A DNA stretch of 64,000 nucleotides, taken from contig KZ627153.1 in assembly GCA_002917775.1 (NCBI GenBank), forward strand, positions 226,996 through 290,995. Direction: 5' to 3'. Within the stretch, counting starts at the first letter, position 1. Every line of letters starts with the position of its first letter. The DNA is from Glaciozyma antarctica PI12 (lineage: Eukaryota; Basidiomycota; Microbotryomycetes; Kriegeriales; Camptobasidiaceae). Positions 4,360 to 56,183 of the stretch are shown in pieces. The translations under genes and the position numbers were made by a program. Under the pieces are notes generated by a model, which saw only the letters and a list, made by a program, of their open reading frames with translations, made no database searches and was not told the DNA's origin.

Positions 4360-7310
4360 CTAACGAATGGGAAAGGAGGGATAGTAAAGAGATAGATCAC
4401 GCTGGGATAGAGAGATAAAAAGACATGTGCAGCTGGAATGAGGAGAGGGAGCGAGCGAGGGAGCGAGGGTGGTGGTGGTGGGAGGTGGCGAGGTTAATCG
4501 CGTTCGTCCATCCCCATCGCCGCCAACAACGACGCGTTCTGAGTCCTGATCGTCCCCACTCCCGACCTTGCCAGGCGATCCTCCAACGAGGCTTCCAGCG
4601 CTGTGCGTCCTCTCGAGCTTGACGCGCTGCTTGGCGGGAGAAGAAGCGAGCGACCTCGCCATGCTCGACGCGGCCGTCTGCGCTGGGGACGACGACATCT
4701 TCTGCGCCGCGCTCGCCATCTTGCCCTTGAGGTCCGAGAGGACGATGATGTCGGCGGGGGAGACGTACCCCTGCCCCTCGGTGCTGAGGTACGCGAGCGC
4801 CGTTTCGAGCGACGAGTACGCCTGATCGAACGTGACGCTATGTCGCTGCTGTCCTGGCGTCGAACGAGTCGAGGGACGGGCGACGGCGGGCGGAGGAGAG
4901 TTGTAGGGGACGCCGCCGGAGATGGTCGCGCGACGAGTGGGGACGCCGGGAGCGTGAGTCGGGGAGGGGACGGGGGCCGAGTGTTGCTGGACGAGAAACG
5001 CGGCTTGGAGTTGAGATTGGGTGCCGTCGGGACCGTGACCAAAGTAGCCCGTCGCGGGGGTCGAGGGGAGGGAGCCCGAGTTGGAGTGGGTGGTCGAGAA
5101 GGAGCCGTACATCGAGCCGGTGAGGGGAGTGCCGCTGCCGTTTTGCGACGAGAAGGCGGTCAGGCCAGAGTACGACGACGTTGTCGACGCGGTCGATCCC
5201 GAGCGTACGTGGCGGAAGTTCCCTCCTGGGGAGTTGGCGCCTGATCCTGCGACCGAACCAGGAGCCGACGCCTGGTAGTGACCGAAGTGGGACTGGGAGG
5301 TGAACTGGAAAGGGGATTGGAGGGGGTAGGGGAGTTCCTGGCTCGAGTACTGGCTCGCGCCGGTGCTGCCGCTGCTGACCGAGTAGAGTCCGGCGGCGGT
5401 TTCGGATCCGGCGTAGGACGAGGTGCTGGAGAGAGGTGCGTGGGAGGATCGGGAGGAGTGGGACGATGGGGCGCGACCGTGAGGCTGCTCCTCGAACGTC
5501 GACTGCGTGAAGCCGGTACTGAACGGGTCGTTGTTGCGCGATGCTGACGAAGCCGTCCTCGAATGCGACGCTGTCCTCGAATGCGTCGGCGTCGACTCCG
5601 AGTCGAGCTCAGTCTTGGAGATCGAAGTGCGAAGCGGCGTTCTACCGTCGACGTCCATGCGAGTCGACGAAGACGACGACGACGACGGTCGAGCCACGCT
5701 GATGCTGTTCGAGCTCGACGTCCTCGACTGGACCTGCCTCCTCGTCGAGTTCTGCCTCTTGCTCTTCCTCGGGCTCTTGGCCGGCGAAGGCTTGAGATCA
5801 AAGTCGGCGTCGTCCTCGTCCTCCTTGATCTGGATCTCCTCGTCCTCCTCCTCTTCGACCGTCTCGTGCGTACGCCTTCCTCCGGGACTCATAAAATCGA
5901 CGAACGTCTGCGCAGCGATGCCCGCGCGGAGCTTGAACCGCTCGACCCACGTCAGGCTCGCCTTGAAGTTCTCGCAGCCTTCGAGGTTCGGCGCGAGCTC
6001 GAGCGCTTTCGCCTGGAGACCTTCGTCGGAGAGAACGGCACCGCCTTCGACTTGTACGCGAGCCCAGTTGGCGAGCTCGTCGTCGAGTGCGGGGTAACGA
6101 CCGCCGGTGAGGCGAACCACGACGGGAGGGGATAGGGGGGCGACGACTTCGGTGGACGGGGTCGAGGAGACGGGGTCGGGAGTAGGAGTGGGGGCGACGA
6201 TGGAGAGGGAGCGAATCGAGTAGTCGTCCTCGTCGTCGTCGGGGAGGGAGAGCCAGTGCTCCTTGCGTTTGAGGATCTTGGAGACGGTGCTTCGCTCGAC
6301 GCCAAAGTTGGCGCCAATGTCCTCCTGCTTGCTCGTTGGGAACGCTTCGTGATGTTGGCAGATACGCTTGCGATCGAGGTTGGAGAGCTTGGTCGAATTC
6401 CCTCGTCCTTTCTTGGGGGACGTGGAAGATCGCCGACTTAGAGTTGGTGCTCCACGGCGAGGTGTTCCCGCGTTGCCCAGCCCCTCGCCCTTCGCCGCCG
6501 ATAACGATCGTTCATCGCTTCTCCGCCGTAGACTGAGCTTGCTGCCGAGCTGGAACCGATGCGGAGGTTCGAGATGGACGACGTGCTGCTGGGGCTCGAG
6601 CTCCGGACTGAGTGCGCGGGATCCATGGTCGCCGAGGTCGGGGTCGACTGGCGAAAGGGAGAGGGAAGGCCGCCGGGAAAGATGGAGGAAGAGGATGCAC
6701 CGAGAGCCTCGAGTGCTAGGGAGGTGGGAAGGTGAAGGCGGAACGACGGCGATTGGGTTCGTACCGGCGACATCGAGGTGGGATACGGCTCCGATGCAGA
6801 GCTCTGCGCACAAGGAGAGGAGGACGGTGGGATCATTAGCTTCCTATCCCTTGCATCCCGTGCCCTACAGAGAAAATGAAGACGGACCTGACCCTTAGTC
6901 GCTCGACTCTGTAACCTCGTCCTCACCCTCTTAGAGCCGCCGACGCTGTCACCTCGAGATAGCTCCGTCCCCTCGTGCACTCGTTCCACCACCTCGTCCT
7001 CCTCCGTCTCCATCCTCATATCGACCCCAAGGCCCGCGAATCTGTCGTCGGGATCGCCCGAGGGGTAGCCTCCGAAGAAAGCATTTTCCTCGAGGAATCC
7101 TTGCAGAGCGTCCGTCGACTCGAGCGCCGAGCTCTCAGGACTCATAGCATCATTCGTCCACTCGCTCCACGCGACTGGGTTGAGGTCGGGCGAGCCAGCG
7201 ACTTGTTGCTGGTGCTGGGAGAGCGTCGGCGGACTTGAGGGAAGGTGCGAGGACGAGCTTCGGAGATGATGGCGTGGAGAGGCGGCGAGGCTCAAGTCGG
7301 CCATGCTCAT
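4360..7310 (-). CDS. CENP-B-type helix-turn-helix DNA-binding protein
   Basis: Exon 1 runs from the ATG at 7310 to 6888; an 84-nt intron (6804-6887) has a CTAATG branch site. After it comes a low-complexity Ser/Pro region, then a first HTH (KRICQHHEAFPTSKQEDIGA ... VERSTVSKILKRKEHW) and, after an acidic linker, a second HTH (ALDDELANWARVQVEGGAVL ... FKASLTWVERFKLRAGI). This pair is the CENP-B/Tc5-transposase DNA-binding module found in Abp1 and CENP-B. No DDE catalytic domain follows; the C-terminal two thirds are disordered and Ser-rich, with one helical block near the end (SLETALAYLSTEGQGYVSPA). The frame shifts once near 6500-6515 without a credible intron, looking like a one-base deletion. 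The stop is uncertain: another frame would stop at 4494. The likely role is chromatin or centromere/ARS binding or transcription. Confidence 0.65.
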
Positions 7311-14036: not shown

Positions 14037-14128
14037 GGACAGATGGCCGAGCGGTTAAGGCGCCAGCTTAAGGTCTAATACACCTGCTGGTTCTTAATTG
14101 AGCGTGGGTTCGATTCCCACTCTGTTCA
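14037..14128 (+). tRNA. tRNA-Leu(AAG) with an 11-nt intron
   Basis: The acceptor stem GGACAGA pairs with TCTGTTC (one G-U pair), discriminator A. The D arm is GCC-GAGCGGTTAA-GGC with the A box TGGCCGAGCGGTTAAGG. The anticodon stem CCAGC/GCTGG encloses 18 bases: loop TTAAGG+T with anticodon AAG, plus 11 extra bases (TCTAATACACC) directly after position 37, the standard site for tRNA introns. A long variable arm (CTT-AATT-GAG) marks a class II tRNA, and the T arm is GTGGG-TTCGATT-CCCAC. The total of 92 nt minus 11 gives 81 for the mature tRNA. It decodes CUU (and CUC via inosine). Confidence 0.94.
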
Positions 14129-44932: not shown

Positions 44933-47900
44933 TTAATGCTTCTTGGGCTTCTTGCTCTTCTTCCCCTGCTCCTTCTCCGCCTTGGCGTTCTTCTCCTTCC
45001 TATCCTCCGACGACTTCCTCTTCGTCGACGCCGGGTTCTTGATACTGATCAACGACGAGACACCCCCCACTCGCTCGCCCCCAACCCGCGAAGCAACCTT
45101 CGCCTGCGCCGCCTTCCACTCGTCCTTATCCCCTCCAATCGCGTACCTGCCACCAGAGACAAATCAGCCCAACTCGCGACGCCAAAAGCGACAAGGACCC
45201 ACTTACTGTTTCAAATCGAGCGAATCAATCACCTCGCGCTGCTGCTCCTTCAACTGCTTGAGCACCTCATCTCCCTCGTCCGCGAGCTCCTGCGCGATCG
45301 CTCGCTCGCCTCCGGCCGTCGACATGGCGCCGGCGGAGGGCTTGAAGATCTTGGAGGTCGGGCCTTGCTCGTCGGGGAGGGTCAAGGCGATATCGGCCTT
45401 TTGGACCTCTTGTAAGCTCTTGGTCATCTTGCGAATCGTCTTGACGAAGAGTGCGAGAGATTGGGCGACGGGGAGTTGGAGCTCGGTCTGCAGAGACGAA
45501 CATCAGCTTCAGCTAGCCTCGTTGATTCGCGAACAACGAACCTCGATGTCCTCGACCGGCTTGCGCTGGAGACCCAGTGCGAGCAGGATCGAGCTCTGGA
45601 CTCCGGAGAGCTTGATGTCGGTAGGGAATCGGTTGGAGAAGTAGAGGGCGGCGAGGGTGGGGAGGAGGTCGAGAATGACGTGGTAGTCGAGCATGTTGTT
45701 CGCGTACGAGTCGAGGCGCTTGAGGTCAAACGGGGAGAAGAGGGCTCGGACTTCGGAGGAGACGAGGGCTGCGAGGGGGACTAGATCAGTGTCTGGCGCA
45801 GGCGAATGGGGATGGGAACGCACCGTGCTGGCGCTCCGAGTTGTTGAGGTCGCCTGCGCTAGCTGCCTCCAGCACGCTGAGAGCCGTCACGGACGCGAAC
45901 TCGCGGAACTTGAAGGAGAGAAGGGAGATGAAGCGTTTCCGGAAGTCTGCGCACGTCACTCATCAGCTGGGCCGATTGTATCACCGCAAAACACGACTCA
46001 CCGACAGAGAACGCAGCGAGCCAAGCGGCCGACTCGTCCTTGTTCTTGTTGAGACCTCGCAGCATGACGCAAGTGTGCTCACCGGTGAGCTCGTAGGTCG
46101 TCTGGCGCATGTACAGCGGGACGTAGCCCGCGCGCTTCCAGAACTTGAAGAGGAGGGGAGTGATGCCGTACGAGACGCCGAGGTAGTCGAGCTTCTCGGG
46201 TTGGCGTTCGGAAAGGAGTTGGAGAAGAGGGGGCATCTTGGCGGCGTCGCGGATGCCGATCTTGTCGGTCTGGAGGGTGTCGGACTGGTGTGGAATGCGT
46301 AAGGAACTTGCGAAGCAGCGAGAAAGTTCTGAAGGAACGCACCTCGTCGACCTTGGCAATGTCCTCGAACGTCTCGACCTCCATCTCGGCCATGACCTCG
46401 TCGAGGTTGAGTAGCTCGCCAGAGTAGAACGAGTTGAGCGCTTGGAGAGCGCGAGATCCGTATCCCATCTGTCGAGACCAGGTCAGCAACTGCGAGTTGA
46501 ACGAGCGAGAGAGGAGCGAACCTTGGCGTAATCGGGGTGCACAGCGATCCTGACTATCCGAGCGCCGGAAAGCGAAGCAAAGTCGTCGTCCTGGTACTGA
46601 AGGAGGGAGGGGGAGAGTCAGCGCGAGCTCAAGTCAAAAACGCGAACCGACGAACCTGCTGCGAGATCGTCCAAGGAATGAGGTCGCCTCCTGCCATCTT
46701 GCCGCGACTAAGGTTGTCCAAAACGCTCTGCTTGGAGATATTTCCTTCGAGCGCGACCTGTCCCACACCGTCAGCGCAAGACCTCCCGAAACGGAACGGA
46801 ACGAACGCACCTGCATAACGACGAGAGGATCGGGAAGAGTGTTGTCGCCTTCCTTGAGCGGAGGGAGGAGGACGAAGAGGTGTTGTCCAGGCGCGTCGCT
46901 CATAAGCTGAAGGTCGTTGGGCGAGTTCTTGTAGTGGCTCGCAACGTAGAGCGACATCATGCGCTGGAGGAAGACCTCGGAGGCGGGGTGGAAGGAGAAG
47001 AGGGTATCGCGGTTGACGTAAAAGAGTTCGCACGTCGAAGGGTGCGGGCAGCCTTGAAGCGTCTTCTTGGACGGTACGGAGAGCGTCGCGTCGAGGCAGA
47101 GGAGCTGGTTGAGCCACTTTTCGATAGGGTCGCCGGCGCCGTATCGAATAGGAGTGGTGAGGTTGATCTCTTTGAGCGTTCGCGCGACCGTTCCTGCGAG
47201 CGGAGTCGATCCTCCTGCGGTCTTCGCCGACGTTCCTTCCGCCGCTTGCGGGACTGAGATGGCCGAAGCGGGCCTCGACATCTCGCGGAGTTGTTGAAGG
47301 AGCTTGAGGGAGAGGGAGCGACCGGTGCCTTCGTAGCCGTTGATGGTCGAGGCCATGAAGACGAGGTAGGGGCCGAGGAGGGATCGGACGAGGGTGAGGG
47401 GGATGGCGGCGGCCTCGTCAATAACGACCAGCTCGGCTTGTCCGAGAACGTGGAAGTCCTGGGGTTGGATGTACTGTTGAACGAGAAGCGTCAGTTCTAG
47501 CTTCCAGCACAGCGAGAAACCGAGAAATAACGCACCTGAATCGTCTGGCGATGCTGACGGAAGATGTTGACCCTGACGACGGCTCCCTTCCACTCGGGGT
47601 TGGTACTCTGGACGATATCGTAATCGAGGTGCTCCTCCCACCCAAGCTTGTCGAATCCCTTGAAGACGAATTCGAAGAGCGTCTTGAGGTTCTCGGGGCT
47701 GGGACTGGTGACGAAGATGTTGGAGTACGAGTGGAGGACAGCGAGAGCGATTGAGAGTCCGAGGGCAGCCGACTTTCCTCGGCCACGCGCAGCAGTGAGG
47801 GAGACGGTCTGGGAGAGACTCTTGGACGTGATGGCGTCCGTGAAAGTGAGGATCGCCTTGGCCTGGTCGAGCGTGCGCGCCTCGGCGACGACCTCTCCGA

Positions 47901-49034
47901 TGCCCTTGGTGTCCTTGAGACCCTCCTTGAGCGCTCGCAGCTCCGCCTCTCCCTCGACCTCCCTCCGCTTACCCTTCCCTGCTGAACGACCGAGTCCGAC
48001 GCCTCCTCCGGGTTCGAGAGGAACGATGTCCTTGCCAGCGGAAAGGGGAAGGACGTTGAGCTCGTCGTCGACGATGAGACAGGAGGGGTTGGTGCCGAGG
48101 GAGAGGAGGAAGCGTTCGTTGAAGCGAGCGACGGGGGAGGAAAGGGTAGTGGCGCTGCGGTAGCGAGAGTGGACGTCCTGCGGGCGCGAAAGTCAGCACC
48201 ACTTCTCAGAAGTGAAGGTGCTTCAACGAACCATAGTCATGCTGTACAATCCTCGTAGACTCTTCATGCCCTGCAGTAGGCAGACGACGATTCCTCCTCC
48301 CTCGACAGTTTCGATCGTGCGAGCGAGCAGGTTGGGCGTGATGGCCTCAAAGTCCTGCAAGACGAGCATCGAGAAGGTCTGTCCGAGGATCTTCTCCGTA
48401 TCCTTGTAGTAGCTGCGAGAGAACACGAGCATCAGCTCCATCCCTCGATACTCCCAGCTTGGCGACAACTCACGTATACCGCACGTCCGTCACGCTCACG
48501 AAGAGCTCGAACGGGTCCATCTCTCCCACCTCCCGTTGTCCGCGCTTGACCTCGCGCTTGACCTTGCCCTCGCGCTTCTTCCTGTTGCTCGTGAAGCCCA
48601 AGTCCTTCTTGTAGCACCAGAGCACCGTCGGGCGAGGGTTCTTCTTCTGAGCTGCAAGACCGTCACCGTATTAGCTCCCCTCCTTCCTCTGCTCTACACG
48701 GCTCGTTCACAAGCTCACCATCGGTAGGGTTGGCGAGTCCAGCGATGGATTGGCCGAGGAGGAAGTGGAGGTTGACGATTTGAGCGTGAGCCTTTGCACG
48801 GTCACCCAGGAGGAGGAAGAAGGATCGGTGGGAGGTTTGTAGGGAGCTGCGAGTCTTCAGTCAATGCTGTATACGTGGTAGAGCGTGCGGGGAGAGACTA
48901 CGGACTTGCTGATGAGAGCTGGGATACGGGGATCCAGAGGCTTTCGCCGAGCTGTTGCGTTCGAGCCAGACTAGAAAGAGCGAGGCGGGTTAACTCATAC
49001 GTTCGCTTTAGATGAGCTAAGAGCTACTTACCAT
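44933..49034 (-). CDS. KRE33: RNA cytidine acetyltransferase Kre33/NAT10
   Basis: Coding begins with an exon that contributes only ATG (49032-49034), spliced to SGSNATARRKPLDPRIPALI and SLQTSHRSFFLLLGDRAKAQ. The domain order is that of the family: N-terminal DUF1726 (LGQTFSMLVLQDFEAITPNL), a RecD-like ATPase with Walker A TAARGRGKSAALGLS and Walker B VVIDEAAAIPLTLV, and GNAT with HPDYAKMGYGSRALQ as the acetyl-CoA loop. The C-terminal domain ends in a lysine-rich tail, KKSKKPKKH. It makes N4-acetylcytidine in 18S rRNA and in tRNA-Ser/Leu (with Tan1) and acts in the nucleolus in small-subunit assembly. At about 1,050 residues the length is normal. Roughly a dozen introns; no disruption was noticed. 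Confidence 0.93.
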
Positions 49035-49238: not shown

Positions 49239-50580
49239 TCACATCAACCTCGACCCCTCTAACACCCTCATCCCACTCCTAACATCCTCATCCCACTTCT
49301 CCCTCTCCCTCTCCCTCCCCACCGCCTGCCTCTCCCTCCTCAGCTCCTCGAGCCCCTCCCGCCCCGCCGGACGACGAAACGAGTCCCCTCGCTGCTGTTC
49401 CTCTGATGCGGGTTCGTCATCGCGTTCTGCGTATTCGGGTTCCTCCTCGGAGACGAGGTCCTCGACGATGATCTCGGGCTCGACGACGGGCTCAGCGACG
49501 ATGGGAACGTCGTCCTCCTCCTCGTCCTTATCCTCGTCTTCGTCGTCCGAATCGACGATGTGCAGCTTGACCATCGGTCCCGAATCCGTCTGGAACGTCT
49601 CGACCTCTCCCTCCATCTCCTCCGCGACCTCCTCCTCTTCCAACATCGCCTCCTCCTCCTCCTCCCGCTCATGCTCGACCGCCTGCTCCTCAAAAAGCGC
49701 CTCCTTCCCATCCTGATGATGCACATGATGCACATGCTCATCATCCAACCTCGGGTCGTCCGGCGAGTCCCTCAAGAAATCCTCGCCGACATCATGCGAC
49801 GAATCCCCCTCGGGCTGATGCACGTCCGCCGGAACTTCCTCCTGCCTATCCAAGCGCGCACCACGTCCACGACGCGGGAGGAACGTATCGGGGATGTCGA
49901 CTTTGGGCGCACGCGCTGCGTTCGCTGGGTCGCCGATTTGAGGCCAGGCGCGAGGGGCTCGAACGGGTGTCGGAGGGGAGGAGGGGGAGGGGGAGGGGGG
50001 AGTCGACGCCGGTGCCGGTTAGGGCGGTGAAGAAGACGAGGAGGCAGGCGAGGAAGAAGAGGGCGTAGAGGAGGTCGTTGAGCTTTTGTCGCCGGAGGTT
50101 CGAGTAGGCGTAGCGGAGGACGTCGGCGGGGGATCTGAGAGTGGCGGTAGGGGAGCCGGCGTACGCGATCGAAGGGGTGATACGATGCCGTTGGTCCTGC
50201 GGCGTGAACTTGTCCGAGCTCGTCGAAGGAGGAGACAAAGCGTAGTCCTCCTCGATCATGCCGAGTCCACTCCCTCCTCCAACTCCCATCCCGCGTTTAG
50301 CTCCCTGAGATCCTCCGCGCGAATCGCTCGTGGCGTGCAGTCCGACCGCAGCCGGGATGGAAGAGGAGCTTCCTTGAAGCGCGTGCCCCGTGAGCTGCCT
50401 TGCGCCCGCGCCGGCCTTGGGGAACGTCCACTCGCGCAAGCTCTGCTTCTTGTCCTTGATCGCATGCGGGGAGGAATGGGAGGACGAGTCGCGGGAGGGG
50501 ACGTTGGGGTCGACGTTGTAAAGGAGGGAAGTGGTCGATTTGGACGAGGTCCGCTTGTGCGGAGCTGTGATGATGCCCAT
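49239..50580 (-). CDS. Single-pass membrane protein with strongly acidic C-terminal region
   Basis: Starts MGIITAPHKRTSSKSTTSLL at 50580. About 180 residues of basic, Ser/Gly-rich sequence lead to one clear membrane helix, LNDLLYALFFLACLLVFFTA, preceded by a basic helix YAYSNLRRQK. After the helix the frame must shift by one within a C run at about 49995-50000 to continue as APRAWPQIGDPANAARAPKV, then a very acidic coil (EREEEEEAMLEEEEVAEEME; DSDDEDEDKDEEEDDVPIVA) and a charged helix to the stop at 49239. In the other frame it would end early (near 49846). No family is recognised. A 5'-leader intron may lie upstream. It is divergent from the polo-box-like gene, so a functional link is possible. 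Confidence 0.55.
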
Positions 50581-51142
50581 TCGCGGGGGAAAAGCTGCTA
50601 GGGGCGTCAGTGGAGAGCACGAGTGCTGGGAATGGAAGACGTACGAGCTCACGAAGAGACGGTGAGTAGGGGGGGCGGTCTGTGCTTGGTCTTCAGGAGA
50701 GGAGGCGCTAGAAGAAGTGGGGAGAGACGAGGCGAGTCGGCCGCTGGAGTAGAAGGGAGGTCAGCGCCTGCAGCAGTAGAGTAGTGTGGAGAGAATCAAC
50801 GAACGCTGGAACTGGAGTGAACGCGTGGACCGTCCAAGTGGGTCGAGAAGGTCCGACGGAGGGAGAGTTGGATGGGCGTAGATCCAGCTACTCGGTGCGT
50901 CGTTGCTGTTGCTGCTGCTGTTGCTGTCGACCTTGCTGTCGCCGACGACGAAGAGGGAAAGGAGGGCGGAGGAAGACGACCAAGGGAGGAGGAGTGAACG
51001 ACTGTGTCGCGAGAGGGTTTCGTTCTCGACCCTTTTGACCTCGTCGATCGATTTTAACCTCGAGTGCTGAGACTCCCTCCTCCCCGTGCGGCAGCAGCAG
51101 CACCGACAGCGACAACGACAGCGGCAGTGAGGAGAGGAGGAG
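50581..51142. other. Divergent intergenic region with CAG/CTG runs
   Basis: About 560 bases between divergent starts. It holds a CTG-type run at about 50905-50935 and a GCAGCAGCAGC run near 51090, both imperfect. I found no protein-kinase coding sequence here, which matters for the adjacent polo-box gene. Confidence 0.55.
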
Positions 51143-52922
51143 ATGGAGTCGCGCTCTCCCTTCACTCAGCTCAACCAGCACCACTCAGCGCGTCGACCTT
51201 CCTTCAAGAGCGTAACCTTCCGCCCCTTCTCCTTCAGCGAACCAAACAACCACAACAACGACGAGAACACGCCCTTACAACCACGACTACCTCCTCTCCA
51301 ATCCCTTGAAGCCCTACTCGACCCCTCTCCCGCACTCCCCTTCCCTCAACGCGCCGGGATCTGTTTCGCCGACCGCGCCATTCCTCTCCGGCGCGAGGTC
51401 CTCAGGAAGGCGGCTCAGGTGCCAGCAGTGCAGCAGGAGCGTCGGGAGGAGGTGAAGGTACAACAGGAGGAGCTGGGCGAGCCAACTTCGCGGCGGCGCA
51501 CGAGGAGCCCCTGGTTGGAGAACCTCAGGCGGGAGGTATGGGGAATGCGGAGGGAGAATCAGGACATCAAGGACGTGATAGCTCGAAGGATCACGACGTG
51601 TCGGACGGTGCAGGGCGGTCCAGCCAGGAAGGCCGCGTTCGCGGGGAGCTCTCCGACCATCCGACCTCCCCAAGTCCCTCTGCTCTCCCATTCCTCAAGC
51701 CCTCTCGACGTCCCTTCCCCTCTCCACCAGTTCGAACCTCTCCACTCGCACCACGACCTGCTCCACCTCTCTCAGAACGTCTCAGCACACCTCCTCTCGA
51801 CGAAATCGCACGCCTCTCCACCGCCGGCCTCCCTCCCATCCGCCACCGTCTTCGCACCTCAGGAACCATCGAGATCCTCCCCTCCTCTCACGAAAACGAA
51901 ATCGACCTCCGCTCACGCAACAACGGCGCAATCCTTATTTCAGGCGACGGCAGCTCCGTGCGTCCCCACTCTCTCCGCTCTTCGCTCGCTCATCCCCTTC
52001 GCAGCTATCCTATTTCGACCACCCCGGACCCCCCGACGGACCTCTCCTCCTCCTCCACCCTACCACCACCTATCTTTACCCCTCTTTTCCGCCGAAACAC
52101 CGAAAGCACTACCTCCTGGCTTTTAAATTCCTCTACGCCCTCCGCTCCAGAACCCCTCTCGTGCGTCCTTTCCTCCTCGACACAACTCCACTAACCCCTC
52201 GCGCAGTTGATCCACTTCCCACCACCATCCTACGCCCGTCAAACGATCTTCTCCGACTCCCCACCGTCGTACAACGTCGTCCTCCCCCGTTCGACACTCA
52301 CCATCTCACGCTCTCAATCCACCGTCCGTCTCTCCAACCCAACGCGCACCCTCCCACTCCCGCTATCACCTTCCGATCTCGCAGCCCTCTCCACAGCCGA
52401 ACGAACGGACGTCCAAAACGCCCTCGCACAAGCTCAGGAGATCGACGCGCTCGCCAGCGCTTTTCGCGCTGCCATACCGGCCCCTCCCCTTCCACCCCCT
52501 CCCCTTCCCCCACGCCCTCCTCCTCCGCTACAAGCAAAGATACCAACGATCGCATCTCAGCCAGCGGGACGAGATCCCACGCTCCGCACCATGTCCCTCG
52601 CACCCTCCTCCCCTCCTCCCTCCTCTCCCCTCGCCTCGCGCAAGGCACCATTGCCAGCAATAGAAGACCGACAGTACCTTCCCGGTGCGGGGTGGATCCT
52701 TCGCACGCGGGCGGGAGAGGGCGGGGAGTACGTCGCGTTGTTTGCGGATGGGGAGGAGGTGCGAGTACGGGAGGGGTGGGTGGAGATTCGCGGGAGGAGG
52801 TGAGTCCCCTTGATGTTGGTGAAGGGGTGGAGGCTGATGAATGCAGGTGGAGGGTTGAGGAGTTGCCGGAGAAGGTGGAGAGGCGGTGGATGTTGGTGCG
52901 GGAGATGATGATGTTGTTTTAA
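51143..52922 (+). CDS. Kinase-less protein with PLK4-type cryptic polo-box and C-terminal polo box
   Basis: About 515 residues. The N-terminus is disordered, with one helix (WLENLRREVWGMRREN). The frame changes between about 51536 and 51627; a 92-nt GT-AG intron or a one-base indel fits. Residues about 209-335 match the two-lobed PLK4 cryptic polo-box: TSGTIEILPSSHENEIDLRS and GAILISGDGSSLSYFDHP in lobe 1; then YPSFPPKHRKHYLLAFKFLY, ALRSRTPLLIHF and the FSDSPPSYNVVLP strand of lobe 2. Residues about 450-515 form a third box: LPGAGWILRTRAGEGGEYVA, LFADGEEVRVREGWVEIRGR, then WRVEELPEKVERRWMLVREM to the end, the order seen in PLK4's PB3. Introns at 51958-52004, 52161-52206 and 52800-52846. No kinase domain precedes it. 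The assignment is by recalled family pattern and is not verified. Confidence 0.62.
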
Positions 52923-54958: not shown

Positions 54959-55806
54959 TCACTCGAGGCTCACGCAAGTGGGGACGTCCGTCACCGGAAT
55001 CGCAGCCTCCGCCGCTCGCAATTTGCGCTCGAAAGCGATGGCGACGAGCGAAGATTGATCGCGAGACTTGTACCTTGCAACGCGGAGCGTGTTGTGAGCG
55101 AAGGTGGCGTGGAGGAGGCGTCCGAGAAGGGTCGGTGGAATTGGGGGGTCGCAGGAGATCATGCGGAGTTGAAACTCGACGGTGATGTAAAAGGGAATGA
55201 GGGAAGGGCGGAAGGATTGGAGTTGTTCGGAGTCGGTGAGGAGGGTGGTCATGCGTAGGCGATAGATGAACTTGTTTCGCTCGAGAGGATCCAGGCGATT
55301 GAGCTCGTCACTCATACGGCGCCAGTAAATCTGCGACGAGAGGCGTGAGCGAGGACGACAGAGCAAGTTCATAAAGATTGACGAACGTCTAGCGAATCGG
55401 GTCCAAAGACCTGTCGGAAGGTGTCTTGCTCGATCGAGTCGGACTGCTGAGGATTCGGGGCGCGAGGGTACCACCTATCAGCGGCGTTGTCTGCAAAAGA
55501 CTGGATCAGTTATACACCCTCTCACTGAACGGCACAAACCGTACACAAACCAGCTTGCGCATAGAAGTCGTTCTCAGCTCGCGTCCACGGAGCCTGCTCG
55601 AACTGCAGCGAGTCCTTCCCGCAAAGCAGCTTGTGGCAAGGCCAGACCTGCGACTCCTTATGCTCAGTCATATCTACGATGTTCTGGAGAGGAAGCACAC
55701 GCACGAGGGCTTGATGAGCCTTGGAGCAGTACGCCGCCACTCTACAGCTTCCACAGCGGAGAGGGGCGGGGGACAAGCAAACAGCACACTCGGGAAGCTC
55801 CTTCAT
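54959..55806 (-). CDS. MYND zinc-finger protein
   Basis: Starts MKELPECAVCLSPAPLRCGS at 55806 (a leader intron ends just upstream). The MYND finger runs through CRVAAYCSKAHQ and, after an intron, SQVWPCHKLLCGKDSLQFEQ, supplying the C2-C2-C2-H-C ligands. Small exons then give DNAADRWYPRAPNPQQSDSI and IYWRRMSDELNRLDPLERNK, followed by a helical region FIYRLRMTTLLTDSEQLQSF, SLIPFYITVEFQLRMISCDP and LLGRLLHATFAHNTLRVARY. There is no SET domain. The stop is TGA at 54959-54961, after VTDVPTCVSLE. The same frame reopens immediately and runs 61 more codons (see the next feature). MYND fingers bind proline-rich partners; no specific role is apparent. Confidence 0.7.
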
Positions 55807-56183
55807 CGCAGCAAAGCTCTAGGAGGAGTCAGCAGGTCATCAGAGCGCGGACCGGGTTCAGACGGAACGGAGAAGCTTCTTACTCGTGAGCGCCGTGGAC
55901 GTTGGGAGAGGGGAAGCGTCTCGGGGGTACGCCTCGTTGGCCTGAGCAGGAGCGACTCGCAGGATACTCTTGCGGAGCAGGGGGGAGAGAGAAGGTCGTG
56001 GGTTTGGGAGGAGAGAGGACGGCCCCCCCTCACGATCTCGATTATGAGGACCGTTCCTTTGTTCTCCTGATCTTGGCCTCTTTCGAGCCTTCCCACTTCC
56101 TTCGCGTCGTAAGAACTGCTCCCAGCAGAGTTGAATCAACAGGGAAGACACTAATCACAGCGGGAAAGCACAACGCGCAACGC
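55807..56183. other. Gap between the MYND and DCP2 genes, probable MYND leader
   Basis: About 380 bases. A plausible 3' splice site (CTGAC...CTCCTAG) sits just above the MYND start codon, so the sequence is probably the 5' leader with an intron. Nothing else is recognisable. Confidence 0.4.

What the first reader, a model, noticed from the sequence alone, without database searches (positions are those of the whole stretch)
51143..52922. Kinase-less protein with PLK4-type cryptic polo-box and PB3
PLK4 is the centriole-duplication kinase. Here three polo-box-like units in the PLK4 order (two-lobed cryptic box, then a C-terminal box) occur without any kinase domain, in what looks like a non-flagellated, centriole-free yeast. 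Key matches: GTIEIL...ISGDGSSLSYF, then FPPKHRKHYLLAFKF...LRSRTPL and SDSPPSYNVVL, as in PLK4's P-E-K-x-x-x-K...VRSxxP and ENxPxADFEV; and PGAGWIL...YVALFADGEEVRV...ELPE. A retained polo-box scaffold, perhaps at the spindle pole body, would be a new kind of polo protein.
Basis: partly seen in the sequence, partly recalled or inferred. Interest (0 to 1): 0.88.

Follow-up and report, generated by a model that had tools for sequence, protein, structure and literature searches.

The report
Kinase-less PLK4 relative in a fungus
A fungal gene encodes what looks like the docking half of PLK4, the animal master regulator of centriole copying, without the enzyme half, hinting that part of this machinery may be kept in fungi thought to have lost it.

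Summary
Three clean 46-47 nt introns join the exons into a protein whose 186-residue middle part matches the PLK4 cryptic polo-box (CPB). Of 9 PDB hits the best 7 are PLK4 chains (best E 0.007); the reversed sequence hits nothing. The alignment to human CPB (31 of 111 identical) is reached by 0 of 3000 shuffles (z 12). The second lobe is supported by gap-free colinearity (z 5). PB3 is weaker: z 7 to human and mouse, nothing to fly, missed by an HMM. No Pfam polo model fires.

No printed kinase match lies in the window, and about 560 nt upstream an opposite-strand gene begins. No PLK4-type kinase was seen elsewhere; Cdc5 is present. Two homologous open frames start alike without a kinase and keep polo-box 1 at 44 of 45 residues while the linker drifts (39 of 81).

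New caveat: relative to both, the window copy changes frame near 51565-51590 (short intron, assembly error or lesion).

Best reading: a kinase-less PLK4-type docking protein, a new variant of a known kind. Spindle-pole function is a guess, and the fungal clade is not established.

The parts
51143..51574 (+). N-terminal part (ATG 51143), 144 codons, no known domain; conserved blocks NDENTPL..LLDPSPALPFPQRAGI and RSPWLE.L.REVWG
   Evidence: to VWGxx, 91 of 136 and 96 of 133 aligned residues identical to P0001 and P0002
51565..51627 (+). frame change relative to two homologues (net +2 or -1 nt, about 51565-51590); a 53-nt GT..AG at 51575-51627 would restore frame but has a weak donor (GTGATA)
   Evidence: alignment; candidate introns
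51814..51957 (+). polo-box 1, first part (LSTAGLPPIRH...GDGSS)
   Evidence: 41 of 45 and 40 of 45 identical to P0001 and P0002, the last of the 45 being read from the intron's first codon
51958..52004 (+). intron, 47 nt, GTGCGT..CAG
52005..52160 (+). polo-box 1, second part, with the stretch FPPKHRKHYLLAFKFLYALRSRTPL
   Evidence: PDB alignments to PLK4
52161..52206 (+). intron, 46 nt, GTGCGT..CAG
52207..52464 (+). polo-box 2 of the cryptic polo-box
   Evidence: ungapped colinearity with human PLK4 PB2
52465..52653 (+). proline-rich linker
   Evidence: sequence
52654..52799 (+). PB3-like box, first part
   Evidence: z 7 against human and mouse PB3
52800..52846 (+). intron, 47 nt, GTGAGT..CAG
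52847..52922 (+). PB3-like box, C-terminal part (WRVEELPEKVERRWMLVREMMMLF) and stop

Best explanation
The gene encodes a PLK4-derived polo-box protein without a kinase domain: N-terminal region with conserved short blocks, cryptic polo-box (PB1-PB2), proline-rich linker, PB3-like box. Supported by tests here: CPB homology to PLK4, and no kinase seen in the gene. Partly supported: PB3. Inferred from PLK4 biology: the CPB dimerises and grips an acidic peptide of an anchored partner, PB3 binds a coiled coil, and the protein acts as a dimeric adaptor, most likely at the spindle pole body or another microtubule-organising site, while Cdc5 is the cell's PLK kinase. The confidence given is for 'PLK4-derived, kinase-less docking protein'; the pole part alone I put at about one in three.
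For: PLK4 chains on top in PDB searches, reversed control empty; shuffle tests; closer to PLK4 than PLK1; none of the printed kinase-HMM matches lies in the window, the nearest printed ones on the contig being about 110 kb and 85 kb away (3; the list was cut at weak matches); about 560 nt upstream an opposite-strand gene begins (ATG 50580; 1, 2, 93), whose two long ORFs have no Pfam match; the homologous open frames P0001 and P0002 begin at the same MESR without kinase; PB1's first 45 residues identical at 44 between them against 39 of 81 in the linker; canonical polo boxes only near C10:989.2-989.8 kb, beside the one locus with a PLK-type T-loop among the 10 fetched PLK4-kinase matches.
Against: No Pfam polo model; PB3 missed by HMM, unlike fly PB3, absent from PB3's own PDB search; exon 4 finds no homologue; genomic DNA upstream of P0001 and P0002 was not seen, and they end before PB2; frame change in the window copy; nothing on expression, localisation or partners; structure job not finished (31 to 94).
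Confidence: 0.72

Rival explanations
1. A decaying PLK4 remnant: the kinase was lost and the gene is now breaking, as the frame change at 51565-51590 suggests.
For: Frame change at a site without a homopolymer.
Against: PB1 is nearly invariant between two homologues whose linker drifts; the polo-box exons of the window are open with clean splice sites.
Confidence: 0.15
2. A PLK4 kinase exists but is spliced on from elsewhere or encoded as a separate gene.
For: Exon-level searches can miss divergent kinases; the list was cut; 2 of the 10 fetched kinase loci gave no readable T-loop; only 10 of 67 matches were fetched.
Against: No printed kinase match in the window, little room upstream, no PLK4-type T-loop among the 8 readable ones.
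Confidence: 0.06
3. Chance similarity of a serine- and proline-rich protein to PLK4.
For: Pfam silent; PDB E only 0.007.
Against: PLK4 takes ranks 1-7; composition-preserving shuffles never reach the CPB score; reversed query empty.
Confidence: 0.05
4. A true PLK4-type polo-box protein that works away from the pole, as PLK5 is reported in the nucleolus.
For: PLK5 precedent (passages).
Against: None direct.
Confidence: 0.25

Closest known systems
PLK4 / SAK (CPB structures 4N9J, 4N7V, 6W38; PB3 4YYP, 2N19, 1MBY)
   Same: CPB in both lobes, stretch P-x-K..Y..A..F...LRS..P, PB3-like C-terminus, same order
   Different: no kinase domain seen; 31 of 111 aligned CPB residues and 16 of 63 PB3 residues identical to human; different N-terminus
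PLK5 (polo-box protein with truncated kinase, mammals)
   Same: polo boxes without working kinase (PMC8151477 passages)
   Different: PLK5 has the two-box type of PLK1-3, not CPB plus PB3 (recalled; not compared here)
The genome's PLK1-type kinase, Cdc5 by its features (contig C10, about 989-992 kb)
   Same: polo family
   Different: has kinase and canonical polo boxes

Membership tests
PLK4 | N-terminal Ser/Thr kinase domain of PLK type | tested here: not met
   no RNA evidence
PLK4 | cryptic polo-box PB1-PB2 | tested here: met
   by sequence; but no Pfam match and no structure
PLK4 | C-terminal PB3 | tested here: inconclusive
   z 7 to human and mouse, z 0.2 to fly, no HMM hit; no polo hit
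PLK4 | binding of CEP152/CEP192-type acidic peptides and of STIL | not testable with these tools
   needs binding assays
PLK1/Cdc5 polo-box domain | match to POLO_box PF00659 | tested here: not met
   the 2 genome matches lie on contig C10
PLK5-like kinase-less polo protein | PLK2/3-like polo-box pair with kinase remnant | not tested
   no PLK5 sequence compared

The most novel reading that the evidence does not exclude
A PLK4 orthologue survives centriole loss in a spindle-pole-body fungus by shedding its kinase and serving as a scaffold in pole duplication, so that the PLK4 docking module has a function independent of centriole building.
Probability: 0.35. Interest if true: 0.85.

Novelty: new variant of a known kind. 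Interest (0 to 1): 0.66.

Why it matters
Two papers whose passages I read state that PLK4 is lost from yeasts but present in chytrids, and that among the fungi sampled centriole-building proteins were found only in chytrids (PMC6070874; PMC6559791). A retained PLK4 docking module without kinase in a non-chytrid fungus would show that the loss was partial, give a handle on how spindle pole bodies replaced centrioles, and offer a natural separation of PLK4's scaffold from its catalysis. The survey in PMC6559791 used bidirectional best hits to human or fission yeast proteins (figure legend); here human CPB as a genome query did not find this gene, so such relatives could have been missed.

Tried and rejected
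Pfam on the spliced protein and two parts of it: only sub-threshold, unrelated hits. Genome search with PF18190 (Plk4_PB1): nothing, no control rang. Human CPB against the genome: nothing, no control. CPB region against the protein collection: 2 of 3859 candidates. Exon 4: none of 5552 candidates at E<=10. Profile of P0001 and P0002: only themselves among the 8000 candidates scored. Secondary genome matches to the spliced CPB-PB3 query: 4 places besides the gene itself. L016 (C9, E 2.3e-4, over a stretch that includes the proline-rich linker) gave no tblastn match at E<=1 and L017 (C5, E 0.004) only matches at E 0.06-0.17, one across a stop; the other two (C7, C11; E 0.14, 0.15) were not looked at. 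Clade: aromatic amino-acid lyase PF00221 not found, with 5 of 14 controls ringing; FAS beta and acetyl-CoA synthetase match fungal enzymes best (species of the PDB entries recalled) but do not fix the group. SAS-6_N: nothing, no control rang. Tcp10_C: nothing, one control below the cut-off. Codon-usage frame plot, trained on four long ORFs: not decisive. ACGCGT boxes not enriched (20 found, 16.7 expected). Literature: no paper holds PLK4 + fungi + polo box + Basidiomycota, PLK4 + Dikarya (19) or polo-like kinase + Pucciniomycotina (59). Searches list 5 of 5, 6 of 6, 20 of 55, 5 of 5, 12 of 74, 10 of 75 and 12 of 238 papers; judged by titles and abstract starts none listed is about such a protein. 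This covers only the held open library; I opened four papers, by passages only.

Full report
What is there. Introns at 51958-52004, 52161-52206 and 52800-52846, 46-47 nt long with GTGCGT or GTGAGT donors and CAG acceptors, join the exons from PB1 on into one frame ending at the stop 52920-52922. With a hypothetical first intron the protein has 528 residues.

CPB. The 194-residue segment searched against 177,635 distinct PDB sequences gives 9 hits at E<=10; the best 7 are PLK4 chains (one a chimera), best E 0.007. A 324-residue query including PB3 gives the same 7 on top of 26, best E 0.015. By these seven fall into two groups, five near-identical (human) and two more distant (fly, recalled), so they amount to two independent hits. 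The reversed CPB gives none. Smith-Waterman against the human CPB, with letters printed by the PDB tool, scores 87; shuffles average 30 and none of 3000 reaches it; lobe 1 alone scores 71 (0 of 3000), lobe 2 alone 34 (159 of 3000). Identity is 31 of 111 aligned residues. Lobe 2 laid on human PB2 without gaps over 77 residues scores 14 against a shuffle mean of -64 (z 5.1, 0 of 5000); the twelve other registers tried lie between -49 and -98. I chose that register after seeing the sequences, so the z is somewhat generous, but in a global alignment with lobe 1 fixed the real lobe 2 also beats 1000 of 1000 shuffles of itself. A human-CPB HMM ranks the spliced protein first among 2073 sequences (E 5e-4, next 0.62). 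Against this, Pfam reports no polo family even at E 10.

PB3. The last 73 residues score 47 and 51 against human and mouse PB3 (0 of 3000 shuffles each; 1 of 2000 for human), 16 of 63 aligned residues identical to human, but 21 against fly (1258 of 3000), and an HMM of the three does not report it. Its own PDB search lists release factor 1 first at E 0.07 and no PLK among 17 hits. Position at the C-terminus, GW, F-x-DG and LPE support it; I call it likely, not proven.

No kinase. The genome search with the kinase HMM counts 154 matches; none of those printed lies in the window, and the nearest printed ones on the contig are at 167543-167800 and 364850-365584, against the gene at 278138-279917 (the printed list was cut at weak matches). 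Upstream, 562 nt separate the ATG at 51143 from the presumed ATG of an opposite-strand gene at 50580; the two long ORFs there have no Pfam match at E<=0.01. A stand-alone PLK4 kinase is therefore unlikely but not strictly excluded.

Relatives and the frame change. The protein collection holds two relatives, P0001 (327 aa) and P0002 (346 aa), each one open frame from MESR through the start of PB1 and on into the unspliced intron. Neither carries a kinase before PB1; the DNA upstream of them was not seen. Between them PB1's first 45 residues (the last one read from the intron) are identical at 44 positions, the linker at 39 of 81 and the N-terminal block at 90 of 136, as expected if PB1 is under strong selection. 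The window's frame from the ATG follows them to about 51565, and the polo-box frame follows them from about 51580, with a net +2 (or -1) nt in between. There is no homopolymer at the site. A 53-nt GT..AG (51575-51627) would restore the frame but lacks the usual G at +5; other GT..AG pairs would do so too. Intron, assembly error and recent lesion remain open. Because P0001 and P0002 stop soon after the first part of PB1, they say nothing about PB2 and PB3; exon 4 found no homologue.

Organism. The genome has 19,983,266 bases in 18 contigs; the window is 60% GC. Fatty-acid synthase and acetyl-CoA synthetase pieces match fungal enzymes best (species of the PDB entries recalled). I could not show that it is Pucciniomycotina, and an aromatic amino-acid lyase, which I recall as usual in red yeasts, was not found. 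SAS-6_N and Tcp10_C gave nothing, but without sound controls this does not prove absence of centrioles.

Mechanism. From PLK4 biology (recalled, in part in the passages), the CPB dimerises and binds acidic peptides of centriolar receptors, and PB3 binds the STIL coiled coil. Without kinase the plausible role left is that of a dimeric adaptor. Pole localisation is a guess at about one in three; a role elsewhere, as reported for PLK5, is the main alternative.

Placement. It looks derived from PLK4's docking half, but is not a PLK4 kinase: the defining kinase was not found. Polo-box proteins without working kinase are known (PLK5). A PLK4-type one in fungi I did not see in the listings of searches.

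Noticed in passing
window 51565-51627: Frame change in the window gene relative to both homologues; cause open (short intron, assembly error or lesion).
   Followed up: partly
window 46634-48189 (-): NAT10/TcmA-type RNA cytidine acetyltransferase, split over frames (Pfam).
   Followed up: partly
window 4360-6843 (-): Long open frame with what reads like a CENP-B/Tc5-type helix-turn-helix (LSNLDRKRICQHHEA...VSKILKRKEHWL), judged by eye only.
   Followed up: no
window 49846-50760 (-): Divergent neighbour: serine-rich N-terminus and one membrane-like stretch (DLLYALFFLACLLVFFTAL), no Pfam match.
   Followed up: partly
window 55522-55818 (-): MYND zinc finger (Pfam).
   Followed up: no
window 14037-14128 (+): tRNA gene, the only Rfam match at gathering score in the window.
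   Followed up: no
genome G000: No aromatic amino-acid lyase (PF00221) match, unexpected (from recall) if the organism is a typical red yeast.
   Followed up: no
L016 1501-1992 (G000:C9:323909-324400): Genome match to the CPB-PB3 query at E 2.3e-4 over a stretch with the proline-rich linker; not reproduced by tblastn.
   Followed up: partly
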